Translations under genes and position numbers: made by a program
The notes under the pieces: model-generated
Database searches by the model: none
Told to the model about the DNA's origin: nothing
What the model saw: only the letters and a program-made list of their open reading frames with translations
IMG/VR virus record: IMGVR_UViG_3300010354_007947
Coordinates: 1-20,970 of that record
Strand: one strand, 5' to 3'
DNA: 20,970 nt
Source of the DNA: a virus
Part shown: one piece after another, positions 80 to 11,664 of the stretch
Numbering within the stretch: the stretch's first letter is position 1
Layout: the number at the start of each line of letters is the position of its first letter

Positions 80-946
80 TTATTCTTTCCAATTTTCTAA
101 ACAATTATCCAATGCTTCATCCACTGTTCTCATTTTAATTCCTACATTTAACAACTTTTGATTACTCATCACACAATTTGAACGTGGTGTTTTTGCAGCG
201 GTCTTATAAAAGTCATCTTCATTGTCAAAAAACTCAAAGGTTCTGTCTTTGGCAATTGTTTTTTGCATCTTTTCAATAACTTGTTTAGTGGTTACAAAAC
301 CGGTATTTGTAACATTATATGTTCCGTATGGAACCTTTTTAACAAGAGTCTGTACACACGCATTAACAAAATCTTGTTTATTAGATATGGAGTTTTCCGC
401 ATCCAGAAGTTTCCTGTAATTCAACATTTTGGACAAATAATTTCGAGGATTGTGTTTTTCTTCAAACGGAATACGTAGTCTCCAAATATAATGATTGCCC
501 CAATTGTGTCGAATAACATCTTCAGCAAGTGCTTTAGTTCCGCTATAAAAACTACAATTGTTTTGTTCAAAACTAAAGTTTGGTCGGTCGTTTTCAGTGA
601 ATGGCATACCATCCGATCTACGTCCTGTATAAATACATCCAGACGATACGTGTCCAAATAAAATTCCGTTATTACGACAAAATATTGATAACATCTCTGG
701 AACTATAACGTTTCCATAAATGGTATTGTGTTTATCAGTTTCACAAGCATCCACATTAGGTTTGCCTGTATATCCTGCACAATTAACTATAGTTGTTAAC
801 TTTAGTGTTTTATGTAATAAATCTAAATGTGTATATGTTAATTCCTTTGTAGGAGTCGAACACGTTCTAACAGGTAGATTGTTTTGAAATAATTGTTTAT
901 TGAATTCTTGTCCAATATAACCAGATGCGCCTAATAATAAAATCAT
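80..946 (-). CDS. NAD(P)-dependent sugar-nucleotide epimerase/reductase (NRS/ER or RmlD type)
   Basis: This is an extended short-chain dehydrogenase of 288 aa. The Rossmann glycine motif GASGYIG is at residues 6-12, and the catalytic YSGTK (Tyr134, Lys138) follows an SSGC segment at 101-104. It therefore reduces or epimerises a nucleotide-activated sugar in the cytoplasm. Beyond RmlD, the segments NCAGYTGKPNVDACE (55-69), NPRNYLSKM (166-174), YNVTNTGFV and TPRSN resemble, from memory, the C-terminal half of plant rhamnose synthases and the bifunctional 3,5-epimerase/4-reductase (NRS/ER) also known in giant viruses. Cys104 and Lys173 sit where that family has residues reported as important for epimerisation. 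It starts 15 nt after rmlA and ends one base before the next gene. No good ribosome binding site precedes the ATG. The family is secure; NRS/ER rather than RmlD is likely but unproven. Confidence 0.8.
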   Translation of the reverse strand: MILLLGASGYIGQEFNKQLFQNNLPVRTCSTPTKELTYTHLDLLHKTLKLTTIVNCAGYTGKPNVDACETDKHNTIYGNVIVPEMLSIFCRNNGILFGHVSSGCIYTGRRSDGMPFTENDRPNFSFEQNNCSFYSGTKALAEDVIRHNWGNHYIWRLRIPFEEKHNPRNYLSKMLNYRKLLDAENSISNKQDFVNACVQTLVKKVPYGTYNVTNTGFVTTKQVIEKMQKTIAKDRTFEFFDNEDDFYKTAAKTPRSNCVMSNQKLLNVGIKMRTVDEALDNCLENWKE

Positions 947-961
947 AACTGTTCATATATA

Positions 962-1804
962 TCATATGACAGATTCTAAATAATTTCTATATTCTGATTT
1001 TGGTGTTTTTTCTATTAATTTAATAAATTGTTTTTGATCTATAAACTCTTGATTTAAACACTCTTCTTCAATACATGCAATTTTACATCCTTGACGGTCT
1101 TGTACAGTTTGTACATAATTACTGGCTTGTCCCAATGTCGTTGGTGACCCAGCGTCCAACCAAACCGTACCTTTTGGCATTTTTACTACATTCAAATTAC
1201 CCTCTTCCATATATCTACGATTGATATCAGTAATTTCATATTCACCACGTTTAGAAGGTTTTAATACTCTAGCATATTCAATTACCTTATTGTCATAGAA
1301 ATATAGGCCAGGAACCGCATATTTGCTTTTAGGCACATTTGGTTTCTCTTCAATAGACAACGCTTTGCCGTTAGAATCAAACTCTACTACACCATATTCT
1401 TTTGGGTTGTTAACCTTATATGCAAATATAACAGCGCCGGTAAAATCAACCTTCATTCGATTGAATCCATGAAACACGTTATCACCCAAAATCAAACAAA
1501 CACTGTCGTTGCCTATAAAGTCTTCGGCAATCAAAAACGATTGTGCAATACCCTCCGGTTTTGGTTGTACCTTATAAGTCAGATTCAATCCTAAATGTTC
1601 ACCATCACCAAATAACTTTTGGTACAATGGAAGAAAATCATATGATGATATGATACAAATATCTTTGATTCCGCAAGAAATTAAGGTTGATAATGGATAG
1701 TATATCATCGGTTTATCATACACTGGCAACAATTGTTTATTAACAACTGTTGTTAGTGGATATAACCTAGATCCCGTTCCTCCTGATAAGATAATACCTT
1801 TCAT
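962..1804 (-). CDS. rmlA: Glucose-1-phosphate thymidylyltransferase
   Basis: RmlA joins dTTP and glucose 1-phosphate to give dTDP-glucose, the entry step to dTDP-deoxysugars such as rhamnose. The 280-aa product begins with the nucleotidyltransferase signature GGTGSRLYPLT (8-18), followed by NKQLLPVYDKPMIYYP (22-37). Further family blocks are LGDNVFHG (106-113, Asp108 a likely metal/sugar ligand), SIEEKP (150-155), EYEITDIN, and WLDAGSP (215-221) with a C-terminal RQG.KIACIEE. The length is close to the usual 290 aa and nothing essential appears missing. The start ATG overlaps the stop of the kinase gene upstream in an ATGA arrangement. The epimerase/reductase gene follows 15 nt later, so this is a sugar-nucleotide operon embedded among phage replication genes. 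No RmlB dehydratase is in the window. Confidence 0.95.
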   Translation of the reverse strand: MKGIILSGGTGSRLYPLTTVVNKQLLPVYDKPMIYYPLSTLISCGIKDICIISSYDFLPLYQKLFGDGEHLGLNLTYKVQPKPEGIAQSFLIAEDFIGNDSVCLILGDNVFHGFNRMKVDFTGAVIFAYKVNNPKEYGVVEFDSNGKALSIEEKPNVPKSKYAVPGLYFYDNKVIEYARVLKPSKRGEYEITDINRRYMEEGNLNVVKMPKGTVWLDAGSPTTLGQASNYVQTVQDRQGCKIACIEEECLNQEFIDQKQFIKLIEKTPKSEYRNYLESVI

Positions 1805-3678: not shown

Positions 3679-3706
3679 ATCATACCATAACTAGTTTATT
3701 AGTCAA
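3679..3706 (-). promoter_or_regulatory. Sigma70-type promoter for the 78-aa gene unit
   Basis: On the minus strand TTGACT (3706-3701) is separated by 16 bases from TATGAT (3684-3679). The -35 box overlaps the last Asp codon and the stop of uvsE. A 6-bp inverted repeat, GTTAGT/ACTAAC (3656-3661 with 3667-3672), lies where the transcript should begin. It is one of four exact TTGACT sites with 16-17 base spacers in this window. Confidence 0.55.
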
Positions 3707-4646
3707 CAAAATTCATTTTTTTATTGAACTCATTTTGAAATTTTTCAATAGCGTAATCTTTGGCTTTAAACTCCATTTCCAAGTCCAACGGACAATTGAC
3801 GTTATGAAATTCCTCTGGAAAAGATGTGGCATAATGACCGTGTGCTCGCACATTCTTTTCAGAAGGATCATTGTCACTAAAATGAAACAACGGGATATAT
3901 TGTTGCCATGTATTTTTTGCCATGGCAATTGCATCATCCGCAGTTTGACGACCGGGGTTACATCGAAAGTGTAGATTGTCATACGTAATTGGAATGCCAG
4001 TTTGTTGATATACATGTTCGTACAACTGTTCAACATTCCAACTATTTGGTTTATCTTCGTTTTCCAAAACCAATCTACTCCTCACATTGATTGGAAGATC
4101 GTTGTATACGTCAATAAAACGCTTTGCGATATCTTTTAAGTCCGCTCCTTTGAAGCAATTCATATGAATGTTGATAGGTGCATCATATGATTGAGGAAGT
4201 CCCAGATAATCCATCATCTTTCCATGAGCTTTCAACTCAATAACAGATTTTTGAGCCACATTTGGATTTGCGCTAGCAGGAACGACAAATTGATCAGGAT
4301 GTGTTGAACAACGAATGTTGTGTTGTTTGATGACGGACGCACACAGATCAAATTCACGTTTGATTGTGTCAAAATTGTAAGTAGATTCAATTGAAAGATT
4401 TGCTTCTGGTAGAGTTTCCAGAGGCATCATCCCGCTACTGATACGATAATTCCACTTACGAGAAGCACAATACTCTAGAGTCTTGCGTGTTACAAATACA
4501 TTATTTAGGGTACGATCCGCAACGACACGTTCAGCGTTTACTCGTTCCAATTGAAGGAAACGAGTTTTTGTCATGGTAGATGCTTGAATTCCCTGTTCTT
4601 GAAGTTTGAGGGAAATACAACAGAGTCCGAAACGTAAATTACGCAT
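3699..4646 (-). CDS. uvsE: UV damage endonuclease
   Basis: UvsE/UVDE nicks DNA immediately 5' of UV photoproducts and other lesions, starting an excision repair that needs no photolyase. The 315-aa product is a TIM-barrel metal enzyme of the usual length. Family landmarks are all present: RFGLCCISLKLQ at the N-terminus, SSGMMPL (70-76), HPDQFVVPAS (116-125), NIHMN (159-163), LVLENEDK (192-199), DNLHF (223-227), HFSD (255-258), AHGHY (268-272) and LEMEFKAKD (289-297). These supply the His, Glu and Asp metal ligands. The first ATG is needed for the conserved N-terminus. That ATG lies in the 3' arm of a 10-bp hairpin, so translation may be controlled. The gene ends within a promoter for the next unit. 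Confidence 0.95.
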   Translation of the reverse strand: MRNLRFGLCCISLKLQEQGIQASTMTKTRFLQLERVNAERVVADRTLNNVFVTRKTLEYCASRKWNYRISSGMMPLETLPEANLSIESTYNFDTIKREFDLCASVIKQHNIRCSTHPDQFVVPASANPNVAQKSVIELKAHGKMMDYLGLPQSYDAPINIHMNCFKGADLKDIAKRFIDVYNDLPINVRSRLVLENEDKPNSWNVEQLYEHVYQQTGIPITYDNLHFRCNPGRQTADDAIAMAKNTWQQYIPLFHFSDNDPSEKNVRAHGHYATSFPEEFHNVNCPLDLEMEFKAKDYAIEKFQNEFNKKMNFVD

Positions 4647-5549: not shown

Positions 5550-6725
5550 TTATCTACCAACCTCTTGAAAAAAATTACTCTTAGCGGTGTTATATGACAT
5601 ATCCATTATAGAGTTATAGTACAATACGTCCTTTTTAAGGTTATTTTCCGACTTCAATTTCAAATATCGATCTTTGGCTTTTACTTTCCACCAATCCAAA
5701 ATGGCATTTTTATCATCAGAAAACAACTTTTTCATCACCAATTGGTCTTCATTTACCTTATTTTGTAAGAATTCCTTGGTATTTTCGTAAAAACTACTGT
5801 AATAAACCCCACGTTCATACCCATGAACATAATTTTGAGTTTTAATATTCAATTCTTGAAATATCATGCTTATGACTCGTTGTTTAGCACCTGTTACTGG
5901 TCCAGACACATCGTCCTTTTGTGTCATTTTCTTGATATATTCCTCAGATTTATTCTCCTTGATCCAATCGTGCCATTTCTGATAAACATTGTCGTCTGGC
6001 TTAATGGGTATTTTACCAGTACTTGTGCCACACTTATGCCACCACTTCAAACTATTATACATGCTGTAACTACCATACAAACTAGTCGTAGTCATTCCCA
6101 CCAAAGTTTGATTATAAAGTTTCTTCCAAACATCTCTAACCACAGATGATGTGACCAAACACGCAATCAACTTACCACCTAAAAAGTTATATCCAAACGG
6201 TTGCGTACTCATAATGCAACTTCCAATCGAACTATGCGTCAGTTTACCCTCTTCCAACTTGTTTTTTGGAGTCCATCCAATAAACTTGTCACGATCAGTA
6301 ATAGTAATAACATCACTTGATACAGAAACCGCTCCTAGATACCGTGTACGATCACTATTACCGTCTGTAATAAGAAACTTTAAAAATCTACCCGGCGTTT
6401 GACTAAACTCCATTGTGTGACAAAAGACACGCAACATCAACCAATCCAATTCTTGTTGTTCAGTTTCAACATGAACAACTGTCGGATTAATCATATCCAA
6501 TTCTTTCAAAGTTAATTCTTCATTGTAAATATCAGTTGGCTTCCAGATTTTATACTTGACATCATCTGATCGAGACGCAAAGTTGCGATATTCTCTAACC
6601 TCTTCCCATTTCTTATAAAACGTAGCTTCTTCTACGCTCATAGACTTCAAATAGTTCATATTGTCTATGAACTTTTGTTTTTCCAACTCGTATTCAAACT
6701 CCGGTATATCGAAAAAATTAATCAT
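5550..6725 (-). CDS. DUF4338/DruA-like protein of unknown function
   Basis: The 391-aa product has a central block of RYLGAVSVSSD (128-138), RDKFIGW (145-151), HSSIGSCIMSTQPFG (164-178), GGKLIACLVTSSVVRDVW (183-200) and TTSLYG...LKWWHKCGTSTGK (213-238). The order and spacing recall, from memory, the DUF4338 domain of DruA, a component of the Druantia antiphage system, with its YLG, RD.(Y/F)IGW, L(A/G)..LL...W and YG/G.T.G segments. The N-terminal 100 and C-terminal 150 residues are helical and charged, with no recognised motif. The biochemical role of this domain is unknown. The gene overlaps the stop of the 90-aa gene upstream (ATGA), so they are likely coupled. The assignment is moderate; an unrelated phage enzyme with a similar core is possible. 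Confidence 0.5.
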   Translation of the reverse strand: MINFFDIPEFEYELEKQKFIDNMNYLKSMSVEEATFYKKWEEVREYRNFASRSDDVKYKIWKPTDIYNEELTLKELDMINPTVVHVETEQQELDWLMLRVFCHTMEFSQTPGRFLKFLITDGNSDRTRYLGAVSVSSDVITITDRDKFIGWTPKNKLEEGKLTHSSIGSCIMSTQPFGYNFLGGKLIACLVTSSVVRDVWKKLYNQTLVGMTTTSLYGSYSMYNSLKWWHKCGTSTGKIPIKPDDNVYQKWHDWIKENKSEEYIKKMTQKDDVSGPVTGAKQRVISMIFQELNIKTQNYVHGYERGVYYSSFYENTKEFLQNKVNEDQLVMKKLFSDDKNAILDWWKVKAKDRYLKLKSENNLKKDVLYYNSIMDMSYNTAKSNFFQEVGR

Positions 6726-7050: not shown

Positions 7051-7461
7051 TTAAACCGTCTGAGTGACTGATGTAGACGTTTTTTCCCGAACCTCAACAC
7101 TCTCAGATGTCTCCTCAGTGACAGGAGACACATTCATAACATTCACAACATTAGGAATGTTATCCTCAAGAACAACTCCCGCCGTACGAGCTGCATCAAT
7201 AGTTTCCTGAGAAACCGGAGTGTTGGCAAAAACCAACTTCGGACGCCCCTTTCCACCCTTGATTGTACCCAACTTAACAACTTGATTGTCCTCAAGTGCA
7301 TTGGTGAGACGAACCCGAAGCGTAATCAGAGCAGCAAAATGCCGATTCTGATCCCAGAGGTTTGTAATGTTAGGGTGAGACTCACTTGCATCCATGGTAT
7401 AAAAACCATTAGGCCAGTTAACAGTCAATCCAGTCTTATTCTGTCTATTTGTCTTTTTCAT
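7051..7461 (-). CDS. Possible winged-helix-like small protein, 136 aa
   Basis: The region at about 38-78, HFAALITLRVRLTNALEDNQ followed by VVKLGTIKGGKGRPKLVFA, looks like a recognition helix followed by a beta-wing, with the GxGRPxLVF pattern common in winged helix-turn-helix domains. DNA binding is therefore plausible but not proven. Residues 83-136 are a low-complexity Val/Thr/Glu/Ser-rich tail. A clear AGAAAGGA ribosome binding site lies about 11 nt before the ATG. It follows the VWA protein gene by 27 nt and shares its transcription direction, so it is probably in the same operon. Family unknown. Confidence 0.6.
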   Translation of the reverse strand: MKKTNRQNKTGLTVNWPNGFYTMDASESHPNITNLWDQNRHFAALITLRVRLTNALEDNQVVKLGTIKGGKGRPKLVFANTPVSQETIDAARTAGVVLEDNIPNVVNVMNVSPVTEETSESVEVREKTSTSVTQTV

Positions 7462-7488: not shown

Positions 7489-9546
7489 TTAGATTTTACT
7501 ACTACTGTTCAAAAACATTTCATTCATCGTCTTAGCAACACTAATGATGTTGGTCACATCAATAAATCTTGCATCAGCACCATACATTGTTTTAAAACAA
7601 TTATATGGTCCAAAACTAATATTGTCAACTTTTATTTTATTAATTGCAATTTCTGAAATAAAATATGACAAAACCTTATATCCCTTTCCACGAATCTTAT
7701 TCACCTGTTTACGAGTGTGAATACCACCATTATGGGCACCATACGTTATGTATTTGTCACGATTGGAATAATGGTACGCTGGTTCGCCATCTGAGAAATT
7801 CAAGAAATAACAATCTTCAAATTCACCACAATCCTTGAGTAGATCCATGATAGCCTCAAAACACAATCCTTCAGGGGTACTTCCATTACAGTAAAGATAC
7901 GGAAAAATAGTACGGACCTTGTTAAATGAATCCTTGGCAGAATCGTATACCATAGCAATATATGGAAGACCATTATGGCCAGTGGTTCTCATACTCACAC
8001 TGACACGAATGTTACTAATCATAGATGCTGCCTTACAAATAGCAGTAACACTAGTAATTGTATTTGTCCACTTTTTAGCGTGTTGCATACTTCCACTAGC
8101 ATCTATTGAAATATGAATGAATCCTTTCTTATACTGATCGGTATCAATTCGATAAAAAACATTCTCATTCTCAATACCAAGATCGGAAAGTACACGACGA
8201 TCAATCTTACCGGCAGACTTTCTCATGTACTTAGTAGTGTTAATTTCACTACGAATACTAAGACGTTTTCCCAAAAGGTTGCCAAGTTGGATACCACGAT
8301 TCACAGCATCAACATTATTTGGATGTGGATTACCATCACGGTCAACCCACACACAAGGACAAGTGTCTGACAAAGCAAATTCCTTGGTAAAATTCTTCAC
8401 AACTACACAATCAATACCCTTAGTAACAACCGTGGTATCATCAAGATTAGATCCTACATTCACGATAGTTACTCCCGCCTTCTCCAAGTCTTCAAGAATA
8501 CGTTTTTCACGATTGTTAACCTTCTTCTTCTTAATCGTACCAGACAAAAAGTCACGTTGTTTACTAAGAGCCTTTTCAATCGCTTTCAACTTACTCTTGG
8601 AAATGCCAGTATTGTCATTATCTTTCTTTGTCTTTTCTTCGGACTTTTCAACGCCAACGCTACTTACATTGGTTTCAATTCCACCAAATCCATCGTCCGA
8701 TTCAGAATTAACTACAGTAATAACGTGAGATTCATCGCCACTACCATTACCACTGCCGTTCATTTCCAATTGAGTGGACGCATTCTCTTTTTGTTGGTCA
8801 TTAATATTAATGTTCTGATAAATTATTTCACAAACTTGTACCGCCACTTCATAACGATCCTTAGGAGTCTTAAGTCTGTTAATATTAGCAATATCAATAC
8901 ACTCAGCAATCTTTCTAAGAGCCGGTAATGCATCCAAATCCGTATAAGGATTCATCAGATTAATCAATCGTGCTTCATATGACTGGACCGTTGCGGAACG
9001 ATACAAATCGGTAGTCAGTAGTGTTTTAATATGCGGACTATTAAAGTACTTTTCATACAAAGCCAAATAATAACCACGATATCCGGGAGCTGAGTTGTAA
9101 ACAAAGTTATCAATATACCTATCTTCAATGATATTCAGTATGTTCTTAATATAAGAAGCAACCTCTGTCTTGCTGAATCCCTTAGTCTCAGCAATATTAT
9201 ATAGACTACGAGGTACGTTCTGCCAAATATCAGCAATCAGTCGAAAATCGCTCAACAAAATATGAGATCCCTCATGTAAAGCAAGTCCAACTGTACTGTC
9301 GAAATCTTCAGCTTTTTCAATGTCTGCCGACAGATGAATAATATGTCCATCCGTAGAATTTGTATTTGAATCGTTAAAAACAACCGGAATAGATTTGTTG
9401 GTGAGGATACTAACAAAATTTGACACTGCACGACGATTCATATTGAGTCGAATAAGACGAGTCGTATCGTCCATCTTAACAGAGTCATCAAAGTCATCAA
9501 ATTCATCCAACCAAAAGTCAGAGTGAATGGTAGATTTATTTTTCAT
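7489..9546 (-). CDS. VWA-domain protein with N-terminal metallopeptidase-like HExxH domain (CobT-like)
   Basis: In this 685-aa protein, residues 87-99 read GLALHEGSHILLS. This is an HExxH zinc-peptidase motif (His91, Glu92, His95), and NIIEDRYID (138-146) offers a downstream Glu as third ligand. This matches the metallopeptidase-like domains often fused to VWA in CobT/DUF2201-type proteins. A low-complexity Gly/Ser/Asp/Glu/Lys-rich linker spans about 255-345. The C-terminal VWA domain has a complete MIDAS metal site: DASGS (482-486), Thr557 in GSTPEG and Asp586 in FSDGEP. The gene follows the CobS/MoxR-like ATPase, and such AAA+/VWA pairs work together in chelatases and in MoxR chaperones. 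The substrate in a phage is unknown. The gene has its own promoter and a leader matching that of the ATPase gene. Confidence 0.8.
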   Translation of the reverse strand: MKNKSTIHSDFWLDEFDDFDDSVKMDDTTRLIRLNMNRRAVSNFVSILTNKSIPVVFNDSNTNSTDGHIIHLSADIEKAEDFDSTVGLALHEGSHILLSDFRLIADIWQNVPRSLYNIAETKGFSKTEVASYIKNILNIIEDRYIDNFVYNSAPGYRGYYLALYEKYFNSPHIKTLLTTDLYRSATVQSYEARLINLMNPYTDLDALPALRKIAECIDIANINRLKTPKDRYEVAVQVCEIIYQNININDQQKENASTQLEMNGSGNGSGDESHVITVVNSESDDGFGGIETNVSSVGVEKSEEKTKKDNDNTGISKSKLKAIEKALSKQRDFLSGTIKKKKVNNREKRILEDLEKAGVTIVNVGSNLDDTTVVTKGIDCVVVKNFTKEFALSDTCPCVWVDRDGNPHPNNVDAVNRGIQLGNLLGKRLSIRSEINTTKYMRKSAGKIDRRVLSDLGIENENVFYRIDTDQYKKGFIHISIDASGSMQHAKKWTNTITSVTAICKAASMISNIRVSVSMRTTGHNGLPYIAMVYDSAKDSFNKVRTIFPYLYCNGSTPEGLCFEAIMDLLKDCGEFEDCYFLNFSDGEPAYHYSNRDKYITYGAHNGGIHTRKQVNKIRGKGYKVLSYFISEIAINKIKVDNISFGPYNCFKTMYGADARFIDVTNIISVAKTMNEMFLNSSSKI

Positions 9547-9555
9547 TGTGTTAAT

Positions 9556-9584
9556 ATCCTACACCAACATTATAACAAAGTCAA
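9556..9584 (-). promoter_or_regulatory. Promoter of the VWA gene, -35 box inside a palindrome
   Basis: On the minus strand TTGACT (9584-9579) is followed after 17 bases by TAGGAT (9561-9556). The -35 box lies in the 15-base palindrome AAAGTCA-T-TGACTTT (9577-9591), a candidate operator. The stretch TTGGTGTAGGATAT (9567-9554) is identical to that before the CobS-like gene. Its AGGA is also about 10 nt from the ATG and could serve as ribosome binding site, so promoter and RBS readings compete. Confidence 0.45.
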
Positions 9585-9593
9585 TGACTTTTT

Positions 9594-10541
9594 TTAGAAC
9601 GGAGGTTGCGTCTTCTTCAAAGGATCGTTCATCAATGGATCATTGGTAGCTTCACTTGGAACATACTTTTGAACAACTTGTTTGATATAAGTCCTTTCAC
9701 TGTCAACTCCGCCGTCAGAAGCAAATTCAGGATAGATTACACTTTCAGCAATTTCCTTAAGGCTAAAGCCATCCTTAGCAAGTTCAACCATTTCACAAAC
9801 CGCCCGAGTTGAAACAAAGTTGGTAATCTTACCATCTTCCTGCCGATATTGGTCTCGGGTATGGGCAGAAATCTCACAAATAGAACTAATAGTATTAAAC
9901 AAATTAGTATCAGTTGTATCAATCCCAAATCGGTTAATCATCAAAGTAAGTTCAGACTGCTTGTCAAGAAAATCCATTTCAATCTTAACGGAGAACCGGT
10001 CCATAAGAGCACGATCCATAACACGGGTAGCAGTATATTGATTGCCAATATTAGCCGTTCCGATGAAGCATACGCCGGACGCAACATTAACAACTGCATT
10101 ATCCTTCTTTTCATCCAATCGAAGATATCGTTGAAGAGCGTCAAGAACAGTCATCATGATATTAGCAGCATCATGATGAGCACGACTAATTTCGTCCAAC
10201 AAAATAACGGCGTTTGGAGTTTGAATTGCCTTTACAAAGGTGGATTCACTGAAAATGGTTCCTGTTTCCTTTTCAAAATGAGTGTTACCAATAAGAGCAC
10301 TACGTGCATCTTGGGTAGACCCCATGTTAAAATAAAAAAATGGACGATTAAATGCTTTAGCAACTGTTTGGGCAGCGAGAGTCTTGCCGCATCCAGTTGG
10401 TCCCACCATCAACACGTTCTTTCCGTAAAGAACAGATCGAACGAGATACTTCCACTTAGTATCTGAAATGATAACATTATCCGGCTTCTTAGAAACAGCG
10501 GAGTCGAGGATTTGATTGACTGACTTGTTAGTGTTTTTCAT
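9594..10541 (-). CDS. cobS: CobS/MoxR-type AAA+ ATPase
   Basis: This cytoplasmic AAA+ ATPase of 315 aa has Walker A GPTGCGKT (47-54), Walker B VILLDEI (112-118), a sensor-1 stretch GTANIG (161-166) and arginine-finger region DRALMDRF (176-183). The pattern is that of MoxR and CobS, the ATPase of the aerobic cobaltochelatase. Genes named cobS are frequent in marine T4-type phages. The next gene encodes a VWA protein with a metallopeptidase-like domain, the class of partner these ATPases normally use. The pair probably remodels or inserts metal into a target protein; cobalamin synthesis itself is not shown. It sits just after a strong terminator and a TTGACT promoter, so it starts its own unit. 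No Shine-Dalgarno stands at normal spacing from the ATG. Confidence 0.9.
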   Translation of the reverse strand: MKNTNKSVNQILDSAVSKKPDNVIISDTKWKYLVRSVLYGKNVLMVGPTGCGKTLAAQTVAKAFNRPFFYFNMGSTQDARSALIGNTHFEKETGTIFSESTFVKAIQTPNAVILLDEISRAHHDAANIMMTVLDALQRYLRLDEKKDNAVVNVASGVCFIGTANIGNQYTATRVMDRALMDRFSVKIEMDFLDKQSELTLMINRFGIDTTDTNLFNTISSICEISAHTRDQYRQEDGKITNFVSTRAVCEMVELAKDGFSLKEIAESVIYPEFASDGGVDSERTYIKQVVQKYVPSEATNDPLMNDPLKKTQPPF

Positions 10542-10557
10542 AAACTTAATTTTCTAT

Positions 10558-10585
10558 ATCCTACACCAAGTTTAAAAGAAGTCAA
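10558..10585 (-). promoter_or_regulatory. Promoter of the CobS-like gene
   Basis: TTGACT (10585-10580), 16 bases, then TAGGAT (10563-10558) on the minus strand. It follows the T-run of the preceding terminator almost without gap, a terminator/promoter boundary between units. TTGGTGTAGGATAT (10569-10556) matches the leader of the VWA gene exactly. Here AGGA is about 17 nt from the ATG, too far for a usual ribosome binding site, which favours the promoter reading. Confidence 0.5.
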
Positions 10586-10586
10586 C

Positions 10587-10616
10587 AAAAAAGCCGCTGT
10601 TTTTTACAGCGGCTTT
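10587..10616 (-). terminator. Strong intrinsic terminator after the PXPV-like gene
   Basis: AAAGCCGCTG (10590-10599) pairs with CAGCGGCTTT (10607-10616) in a perfect GC-rich 10-bp stem with a 7-base loop. On the minus strand it ends in TTTTTT (10592-10587). It closes the unit containing the 227-aa and secreted proteins. Confidence 0.9.
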
Positions 10617-10639: not shown

Positions 10640-10936
10640 TTAACGTCTATGTCCACGATGATAGTGACCACCGCCAATCCAGATCGTAGGAGCGGGGTAA
10701 TAAACCACCGGCGAAGGAGCGACCACAACCACTGGTTGTGGATATACTACATGTTGAACGACTGGTTGTTGAACTACGACCATTTGTGGCTGATAAACAA
10801 CTGGTGTGTAAACAACTGGTGGTGGACAATATACTGGTCCACCAAATCCAACTGAGACCCCCCAACTGAAATGTCCGGCATTAGCTGTTACTGATCCAAG
10901 TAATGCTGCAACAATGAGTGAATTTAGTTTTTTCAT
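10640..10936 (-). CDS. Secreted Pro/Val/Tyr-rich protein (PXPV-repeat-like)
   Basis: The 98-aa product begins with a typical signal peptide, MKKLNSLIVAALLGSVTANA, with likely cleavage after residue 20. The mature part starts GHFSWGVSVGFGGPVYCPPP and continues with repeated PVVY, QPVV and PQPVVVVAPSPVVYYP motifs (about 40-83), ending in a Gly/His/Arg tail GGGHYHRGHRR. This composition recalls the PXPV-repeat family and other small envelope proteins of bacteria. It is unusual in a phage replication region and may derive from a host gene. It could be exported to the periplasm or surface of the infected cell; the function is unknown. No ribosome binding site is visible. A palindrome abuts the start codon and a strong terminator follows the stop. 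Confidence 0.7.
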   Translation of the reverse strand: MKKLNSLIVAALLGSVTANAGHFSWGVSVGFGGPVYCPPPVVYTPVVYQPQMVVVQQPVVQHVVYPQPVVVVAPSPVVYYPAPTIWIGGGHYHRGHRR

Positions 10937-10980: not shown

Positions 10981-11664
10981 TTACTTAAATTTTACAGTCA
11001 AGTCGTCATCCTTTTGTTTAGGAAACTTATACTTGACCTTTTCACCCTTCAAAGAGTGATCGGATTGTTTTTCAACCTTTTTAAGATTCACATCTTGCAT
11101 TGGTTGATCTGGCAAATCTTCTTTCTTTTCAACAGCATCTACCACTTTTTCATCGGTTTCTTGTGGTTTATCTCCTTGATTCTTCTTTTTTTCCTTATCA
11201 ACGCTGTTTTCGGCTGCTTTATTGTATGCAGTGTTGAGATAGTTCTCTTTATCGCTGGTCAAAAACGTCTTTAAAAAGTCTTTTACTTCGTCATAATCAC
11301 AACCAATCTTCTTAGTTCTATCAGTTTTGTCTTTATATGCAAGAATTTCAAAATTATTATTCCAACGTGGTCTAATATGAATGTGATACGGTTCACATCC
11401 GCACAATTCAAAGTTTCCAGCATCATTTTTCTTAACACTGTATGTTTTATTGATTCCGTGTGCTAATCTATTTAATTCTTCTTCCATCTGAACACACGTT
11501 TTATCAAACTCTATTGTTTTTTCTTCAATTACTTCAGCAATCAAATTCTTCAAAACTGCCGAAAGTCTTTTAGTTTCATTTAAACGTTTCTTTTTTTCAG
11601 CACGTTCTACAAGAACTTCCTTGATAGTTTCAGAAATAAGTTGGCGCAAGTGGTCAATTTTCAT
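10981..11664 (-). CDS. Unrecognised charged protein, 227 aa, helical N-terminus
   Basis: Residues 1-60 form a long charged helix starting MKIDHLRQLISETIKEVL; comparable LRxLIxExIxEVL starts occur in several T4-type phage proteins, from memory. A compact middle part (about 65-135) includes CGCEPYHIHIRP and WNNNFEILAYKDK, probably a small folded domain. The C-terminal 90 residues are a disordered Lys/Glu/Asp-rich tail. There is no signal peptide or membrane segment. It follows the nrdB terminator, so it starts a separate unit with the secreted protein; its own promoter is not clear. A virion or scaffold-type role is possible but is only a guess. Confidence 0.65.
   Translation of the reverse strand: MKIDHLRQLISETIKEVLVERAEKKKRLNETKRLSAVLKNLIAEVIEEKTIEFDKTCVQMEEELNRLAHGINKTYSVKKNDAGNFELCGCEPYHIHIRPRWNNNFEILAYKDKTDRTKKIGCDYDEVKDFLKTFLTSDKENYLNTAYNKAAENSVDKEKKKNQGDKPQETDEKVVDAVEKKEDLPDQPMQDVNLKKVEKQSDHSLKGEKVKYKFPKQKDDDLTVKFK

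What the first reader, a model, noticed from the sequence alone, without database searches (positions are those of the whole stretch)
7489..10585. CobS/MoxR-like ATPase paired with a metallopeptidase-VWA protein under twin promoters
The ATPase gene is followed directly by a 685-aa protein with both an intact HExxH motif (His91-Glu92-His95) and a complete VWA MIDAS. Chelatases and MoxR chaperones use ATPase/VWA pairs, but a candidate peptidase site in the VWA partner suggests a remodelling or protein-processing machine acting in infection. Phage cobS is usually discussed as cobalamin related; this arrangement argues for a broader role. Each gene has its own near-identical promoter/leader, implying matched expression.
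Basis: partly seen in the sequence, partly recalled or inferred. Interest (0 to 1): 0.7.

Follow-up and report, generated by a model that had tools for sequence, protein, structure and literature searches.

The report
Phage ATPase with protease-like adaptor pair
This phage carries a two-gene protein-remodelling machine, a ring ATPase plus an adaptor that still has an intact zinc-protease-type site, of a kind often labelled as vitamin B12 genes; the machine type is already known, but the evidence here speaks against a B12 role and makes the protease idea testable.

Summary
ATPase (9594-10541, -) and VWA protein (7489-9546, -) are adjacent, with HExxH (H91-E92-H95) and full MIDAS. All 97 distinct VWA sequences aligned keep H91, E92, H95, N138, E141, D142, D146 and five MIDAS residues. 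The N-terminal domain folds confidently (pLDDT 93.3); its structural neighbours are almost all zincin metalloenzymes, at weak scores (best Z 5.8). The VWA half resembles NorD, partner of NorQ (Z 20.4). 81 of 85 viral loci fetched by the VWA protein also hold the ATPase. Near-identical promoters sit at these two genes and nowhere else in seven relative contigs. The kind is already in print: MoxR-vWA pairs with an N-terminal metallopeptidase in jumbo phages (PMC7824862) and 'cobST' of tailed viruses (PMC8651126). New here: canonical CobT, linked through bridging phage sequences, lacks HExxH (0 of 5), as does one Acinetobacter plasmid copy; CobN was found in 0 of 16 phage records, some perhaps fragments. 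A cobaltochelatase role is unlikely. Best reading: ATP-driven remodelling, probably with proteolysis; target unknown, catalysis untested.

The parts
9594..10541 (-). MoxR/CobS-type AAA+ ATPase, 315 aa
   Evidence: AAA_5 E 1.3e-19; best solved relatives are midasin AAA modules; Walker A 47-54, Walker B 112-117
10380..10403 (-). Walker A (residues 47-54)
   Evidence: G47, G50, G52, K53, T54 invariant in 8 of 8
10191..10208 (-). Walker B (residues 112-117)
   Evidence: V112-E117 invariant in 8 of 8
7489..9546 (-). zincin-VWA adaptor protein, 685 aa
8791..9474 (-). N-terminal zincin-like domain (residues 25-252)
   Evidence: predicted alone pLDDT 93.3, pTM 0.89; structural neighbours mostly zincin metalloenzymes at low Z
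9262..9276 (-). HExxH (HEGSH, residues 91-95)
   Evidence: 97 of 97 keep H91, E92, H95
9109..9135 (-). N-x-x-E-D-x-x-I-D motif (residues 138-146), candidate third metal ligand E141 or D142
   Evidence: N138, E141, D142, D146 in 97 of 97; which one binds is inferred, not tested
7492..8313 (-). VWA domain with finger-like extension (residues 412-685)
   Evidence: Z 20.4 to NorD VWA in the NorQ-NorD complex, 266 residues aligned, rmsd 6.8; that the extension acts as a finger is inferred
8089..8103 (-). MIDAS DxSxS (residues 482-486); T557 at 7876-7878 and D586 at 7789-7791 complete it
   Evidence: 97 of 97
10558..10585 (-). promoter of the ATPase gene (TTGACT-16-TAGGAT)
9556..9584 (-). promoter of the VWA gene (TTGACT-17-TAGGAT)
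10593..10610 (-). terminator-like hairpin just upstream of the ATPase promoter
   Evidence: 4 terminator-like sites found in the region, 2.3 expected

Best explanation
The pair is a phage MoxR-vWA remodelling machine. Inferred by analogy with NorQ-NorD: the ATPase forms a hexameric ring, the VWA protein docks its finger into the pore and holds a target through its MIDAS, and ATP hydrolysis pulls or twists the target. Shown here: the adaptor's N-terminal domain keeps an intact HExxH plus an invariant E/D pair and is predicted to fold like a zincin. Inferred: this domain binds zinc and cleaves the captured, loosened protein. Its neighbours are replication, repair and nucleotide genes, so I favour a target in the replication phase of infection. 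It is not a cobaltochelatase.
For: Motifs in 97 of 97. Zincin-like neighbours of the isolated domain. VWA half closest to NorD, then midasin MIDAS. Linkage: 81 of 85 VWA-fetched and 77 of 80 ATPase-fetched viral loci hold both. Twin promoters. The HExxH + N-x-x-E-D pattern recurs in phages and plasmids, nearly all of which the window protein's own BLAST search missed: P-SSM2, Bacteroides BS162P1, Gordonia GMA6, Microcystis Mae-Yong1326-1, Ochrobactrum vB_OspM_OC, one E. coli and one Klebsiella plasmid. Profile comparison of the window family with a mixed set of nine such proteins: 99.8%, E 5.5e-30 over 528 columns. Replication context: between gp46 and gp45/gp44 in P-SSM2, between endonuclease subunits and clamp/clamp loader genes in the Ochrobactrum phage, at or two genes before dnaE in three plasmids, beside nrdA/nrdB here.
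Against: No activity, zinc binding or target is shown. Best Z of the domain is only 5.8, below the level at which the tool trusts a fold match, and Foldseek alone gave no match below E 1.5, with unrelated proteins on top. The Acinetobacter plasmid copy lost the site but kept VWA and ATPase, so cleavage is not needed in every lineage. Context does not prove target: T4 assembly chaperones also lie outside the structural genes (recalled).
Confidence: 0.55

Rival explanations
1. Virion assembly chaperone-protease, as proposed for group 2.2 jumbo phages: the machine folds and trims structural proteins during head or tail assembly.
For: Published proposal for the same architecture, citing a MoxR-vWA pair needed for tail assembly of Acidianus two-tailed virus (PMC7824862, passages).
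Against: Neighbours are replication, repair and nucleotide genes in the lineages looked at. 8 of 16 records also carry an S77 prohead protease, so there the pair is not simply standing in for it (the other eight may be fragments).
Confidence: 0.25
2. Metal-insertion chaperone like NorQ-NorD: the N-terminal domain holds or delivers a metal to a client enzyme rather than cutting peptides, for example the class I ribonucleotide reductase nearby.
For: Closest solved VWA relative serves iron insertion into nitric oxide reductase (PMC13036017, passages). nrdB relatives lie in 51 of 96 neighbourhoods.
Against: A catalytic-type HExxH glutamate should not be needed for metal carriage (inference), yet is in 97 of 97. 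In P-SSM2 the large reductase gene is about 33 kb from cobS.
Confidence: 0.1
3. Cobaltochelatase helper: viral CobS and CobT hijack host CobN to raise cobalamin output.
For: Published view (PMC8651126, passages). Homology with canonical CobT is real through bridging phage sequences (99.8%, E 1e-30). Weak model hits point the same way: CobT_C in one of 8 members at E 0.12, a putative cobaltochelatase model in one of 8 at E 0.014, a cobalamin PHROG in one of 8 at E 5.4e-4.
Against: Canonical CobT lacks HExxH (0 of 5). The curated CobT model was not among the hits. CobN in 0 of 16 phage records, and not in the E. coli control genome, although an E. coli plasmid carries the pair with the site intact. 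The B12-dependent reductase model passes its cut-off in only 1 of 16; weaker matches in 14 others may be other classes; this window has class I.
Confidence: 0.07

Closest known systems
MoxR AAA+ / metallopeptidase-vWA pair of group 2.2 jumbo phages (PMC7824862)
   Same: Same two genes and domain order: N-terminal metallopeptidase, C-terminal vWA, partner MoxR ATPase (passages)
   Different: Their named example proteins were not compared here. The window VWA protein has no Pfam, NCBIfam or PHROGs match better than E 0.01; among 8 members the best is a tape-measure PHROG at 3.7e-5 in one member, probably low complexity (inference). The close clade has dedicated twin promoters
T4-type cyanophage cobS and 'peptidase' (P-SSM2 PSSM2_154 and PSSM2_150)
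   Same: HExxH, N-x-x-E-D-x-x-I-E, GxLD and MIDAS motifs
   Different: Very distant: direct profile match only E 4.4e-6 over 61 VWA columns, and E 8.4e-5 over 63 columns round HExxH; the two genes are about 1.2 kb apart there
Canonical cobaltochelatase CobT (Methylobacterium, Sinorhizobium; solved 9uka, 21vu)
   Same: Same superfamily via bridging phage profiles; CobS-type partner
   Different: HExxH absent in 5 of 5; in the two where my second-motif pattern matched, E-D has become E-Q
NorQ-NorD
   Same: Closest solved VWA domain (Z 20.4)
   Different: The words metalloprotease and HExxH do not occur in the two NorQD papers searched (passages); target is a membrane reductase

Membership tests
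MoxR-vWA pair with N-terminal metallopeptidase (PMC7824862) | MoxR-clade AAA+ ATPase linked to a vWA gene | tested here: met
   AAA_5 and midasin as best matches; both genes in 81 of 85 VWA-fetched loci. The helix-2 insert was judged by eye only
MoxR-vWA pair with N-terminal metallopeptidase (PMC7824862) | vWA protein fused to an N-terminal metallopeptidase-type domain | tested here: met
   HExxH in 97 of 97; zincin-like predicted fold at low Z
MoxR-vWA pair with N-terminal metallopeptidase (PMC7824862) | role in virion assembly and processing (proposal of the authors) | not testable with these tools
   needs phage genetics
Zincin-like metallopeptidases | HExxH plus a conserved downstream acidic candidate ligand | tested here: met
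   motifs by sequence, invariant; geometry not measured
Zincin-like metallopeptidases | zincin fold | tested here: inconclusive
   rows 2-36 of 50 are zincin metalloenzymes, best Z 5.8; Foldseek alone no match under E 1.5
Zincin-like metallopeptidases | peptidase activity | not testable with these tools
   needs biochemistry
Canonical cobaltochelatase CobT (TIGR01651, number recalled) | match to the curated CobT model | tested here: not met
   not among the hits for 8 members of A1 at E up to 10, nor for four distant phage VWA proteins at E up to 0.1; HMMER filters hide very weak matches
Canonical cobaltochelatase CobT (TIGR01651, number recalled) | works with CobN | tested here: inconclusive
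   CobN in 0 of 16 phage records, which may be fragments; a host CobN is not excluded
Canonical cobaltochelatase CobS (TIGR01650) | score over the curated cut-off | tested here: not met
   41.8 bits against 558.55
DUF2201-type metallopeptidase/VWA (PF13203, PF09967; numbers recalled) | match to the Pfam models | tested here: not met
   neither among the 14 families listed for 8 members at E up to 10; HMMER filters drop most matches above about 0.1
NorQ-NorD | VWA with pore finger bound to a MoxR ring | tested here: inconclusive
   VWA fold match Z 20.4; complex not modelled

The most novel reading that the evidence does not exclude
These phage proteins keep the working form of a machine from which cobaltochelatase CobT descends as a dead peptidase: an AAA+-powered zinc protease that phages use in the replication phase, perhaps to clear or process proteins on replicating DNA. 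CobT and the Acinetobacter plasmid copy would be separate losses of the active site.
Probability: 0.25. Interest if true: 0.75.

Novelty: new member of a known kind. Interest (0 to 1): 0.45.

Why it matters
Phage 'cobS/cobT' genes are described as widespread in tailed viruses and read as vitamin B12 genes (PMC8651126, passages). The contrast between an intact metal site in the phage proteins and its absence in canonical CobT gives a residue-level test of that label, and cultured phages of Bacteroides, Gordonia and Prochlorococcus carry the intact form. If catalysis is shown, it would add an ATP-driven zinc protease to phage biology and suggest where CobT came from.

Tried and rejected
Pfam, NCBIfam and PHROGs scans of the window VWA protein: best E 0.016, to unrelated families. 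Other members of A1 give single hits: tape-measure PHROG 3.7e-5, cobalamin PHROG 5.4e-4, putative cobaltochelatase 0.014, VWA 0.016, CobT_C 0.12. PDB sequence search with the protein and with its profile: no match. PDB search with the P-SSM2 and Mae-Yong proteins: none, or low-complexity matches. Direct profile comparison of the window family with canonical CobT: weak (15%, E 0.0017, VWA part; N-terminal part 0.3%), so the CobT link rests on the bridging mixed set (99.8% on both sides); for the N-terminal domain alone, mixed set against CobT gives only 43%, E 2.4e-4. Foldseek with the N-terminal domain alone: top rows unrelated, a zincin first at rank 7, E 3.6.

A perfect sigma-70 consensus inside the VWA gene (7628-7600) looked attractive but its two hexamers are kept in 1 of 10 close relatives (L003). 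A shared third gene: relatives of the 227-aa gene upstream (74 of 96 neighbourhoods) and of the 136-aa gene downstream (62 of 96) are the nearest candidates; neither has a known domain, and synteny alone could explain them. One search ran hhalign in global mode by mistake; the local runs are used. My first regular expression for MIDAS missed Gordonia GMA6 and Mae-Yong1326-1; reading the sequences shows DxSxS in both.

The 71 cyanophage sequences were picked as over 600 aa with a DxSGS motif.
Full report
Observation. The two genes lie head to tail on the minus strand: ATPase 9594-10541 (315 aa) and VWA protein 7489-9546 (685 aa). Motifs are as reported: HEGSH at 91-95 and DASGS at 482-486, with T557 and D586 completing the MIDAS. 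The record is a virus record of 20,970 bases with T4-type replication genes: DnaB-like helicase, 5'-3' exonuclease, RecA, gp32-like protein, class I ribonucleotide reductase, UvdE, clamp-loader and nucleotide-kinase relatives. No near-identical DNA was found in the phage collection, from which records near the window's own may be left out.

Conservation. Relatives come from IMG/VR, two phage records and three genome contigs, one partial. Of the VWA hits I kept those over 550 aa and distinct: 96 plus the window. All 97 of 97 keep H91, E92, H95, N138, E141, D142, D146 and D482, S484, S486, T557, D586. One search pattern included the HE dipeptide, so I also looked at the 22 sequences whose loci came only through the ATPase: 22 of 22 agree.

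Linkage. Among 85 viral loci fetched by the VWA protein (L001-L010, L014-L088), 81 hold an ATPase relative; the others are L068, L071, L072 and L088, of which L088 starts inside the gene and L068 has 1.5 kb before its contig end. For L071 and L072 the whole 22 and 38 kb contigs hold none; they may be fragments. Among 80 loci fetched by the ATPase, 77 hold the VWA gene and the other three end at the ATPase. By distinct VWA sequence, 93 of 96 have the ATPase, 79 upstream and 14 downstream, 89 within 500 bp and 72 within 50 bp. In Microcystis phage Mel-JY01 they are 13 kb apart.

Promoters. Both genes have TTGACT, 16 or 17 bases, TAGGAT inside a shared GTGTAGGATAT. Of 24 gene starts examined in the window only these two have it. 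In seven relative contigs of 52-134 kb (four distinct sequence pairs) the pattern occurs exactly twice each, at these two genes, with no hit for the reversed-pattern control. The two copies vary partly together: TTGGTG at both genes in the window, CCGGTG at both in L005, but not alike in L001 or L003. In more distant relatives the second promoter fades and the genes close up.

Fold. Whole protein: pLDDT 81.9; its VWA half matches NorD in complex with NorQ (Z 20.4, rmsd 6.8, 266 aligned) and midasin MIDAS domains. Residues 25-252 folded alone: pLDDT 93.3, pTM 0.89. Foldseek finds nothing significant, and its first rows are unrelated. The second look by VIA-align over 581 chains puts zincin metalloenzymes in rows 2-36 and 38-39 of the 50 shown: a Zn peptidase (3c37), selecase, abylysin, jannalysin, ArdC, ERAP1, LTA4H, IRAP, thermolysin-like and M1 enzymes, IrrE, collagenase T (the class of ArdC, IrrE and LTA4H is recalled, not in the titles); row 1 has an uninformative title. 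Best Z is 5.8, which the tool says can be a common arrangement; the uniform character of the rows is what persuades me. HExxH sits in helix 79-98 and the E/D pair in helix 126-152, a gluzincin-like layout (recalled).

Relatives further off. P-SSM2 'peptidase' PSSM2_150 and cobS PSSM2_154 lie between gp46 and gp45/gp44; the peptidase carries the motif chain HExxH, N-x-x-E-D-x-x-I-E, GxLD, MIDAS. Of 71 cyanophage sequences, 70 have HExxH; the other is cut at its start. HExxH, the E-D motif and DxSxS are also in Bacteroides BS162P1, Gordonia GMA6, Mae-Yong1326-1, Ochrobactrum vB_OspM_OC, one E. coli and one Klebsiella plasmid. In those two plasmids dnaE follows the pair directly; in the Acinetobacter plasmid it is two genes further on, and there the metal site is degenerate.

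CobT. Five canonical CobT proteins have no HExxH; of two more distant 'cobalt chelatase' relatives one has none and one has a match only at residue 376. Profiles link the window family to the mixed phage set (99.8%, E 5.5e-30) and the mixed set to CobT (99.8%, E 1e-30); the direct comparison is weak. In the N-terminal alignment of mixed set and CobT (43%, E 2.4e-4) CobT reads D-S-M-A-L-R against D-H-E-V-A-H and keeps the glutamate of the second motif. So CobT looks like a relative that lost the metal site; this is my inference.

Cobalamin role. CobN-type subunit in 0 of 16 phage records; the E. coli control has none either. The B12-dependent reductase model passes its cut-off in 1 of 16, with weaker matches in 14 others. 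The window has class I. These speak against cobaltochelatase function, without excluding a host CobN.

Known work. PMC7824862 (passages) describes the MoxR-vWA pair with N-terminal metallopeptidase in group 2.2 jumbo phages and proposes virion assembly with processing. PMC8651126 (passages) calls the genes cobST, says cyanophage cobT is mistakenly annotated as a peptidase, and proposes CobN hijack; PMC9503304 (passages) repeats the annotation point. PMC7159879 (passages) reviews MoxR-vWA coupling. PMC13036017 and PMC9976466 (passages) give the NorQD mechanism used as analogy. [quoted passage not shown] PMC3037559 (passages) lists cobS as cyanophage core. Searches for CobT with zincin, metalloprotease or HExxH listed no paper that treats CobT as a lost zincin (titles and abstract starts); the single paper holding both CobT and zincin, PMC9503650, does not concern this (passages).

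Verdict. Real, conserved, and a divergent member of a known kind. The remodelling role is well supported by analogy, proteolysis is plausible, the target is unknown, and a B12 role is unlikely.

Noticed in passing
window 5550-6725 (-): Protein matching Druantia DruA (PF14236, E 1.1e-23), a defence-system protein family, carried by a phage; relatives lie in 60 of 96 neighbourhoods.
   Followed up: partly
window 10981-11664 (-) and 7051-7461 (-): Genes of unknown function flanking the pair, with relatives in 74 and 62 of 96 neighbourhoods; possible third components or substrates.
   Followed up: partly
window 3699-4646 (-): UV-damage endonuclease UvdE (E 1.2e-41) in a phage genome; relatives in 54 of 96 neighbourhoods.
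   Followed up: no
window 7600-7628 (-): Perfect sigma-70 consensus promoter inside the VWA gene; both hexamers kept in 1 of 10 close relatives.
   Followed up: yes
window 10640-10936 (-): Small protein rich in valine, proline and tyrosine repeats with a signal-like start (by eye); no family match.
   Followed up: no
window 80-1804 (-): RmlD-like reductase and sugar-nucleotide transferase genes, suggesting deoxysugar-nucleotide synthesis.
   Followed up: no
L270, L271, L272: CobT-like and AAA+ genes on about 110 kb plasmids, directly before dnaE in E. coli and Klebsiella and two genes before it in Acinetobacter; the Acinetobacter copy has a degenerate metal site.
   Followed up: partly
L011 3144-4826: In Microcystis phage Mel-JY01 the ATPase carries a long extra N-terminal part and lies 13 kb from the VWA gene.
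   Followed up: no
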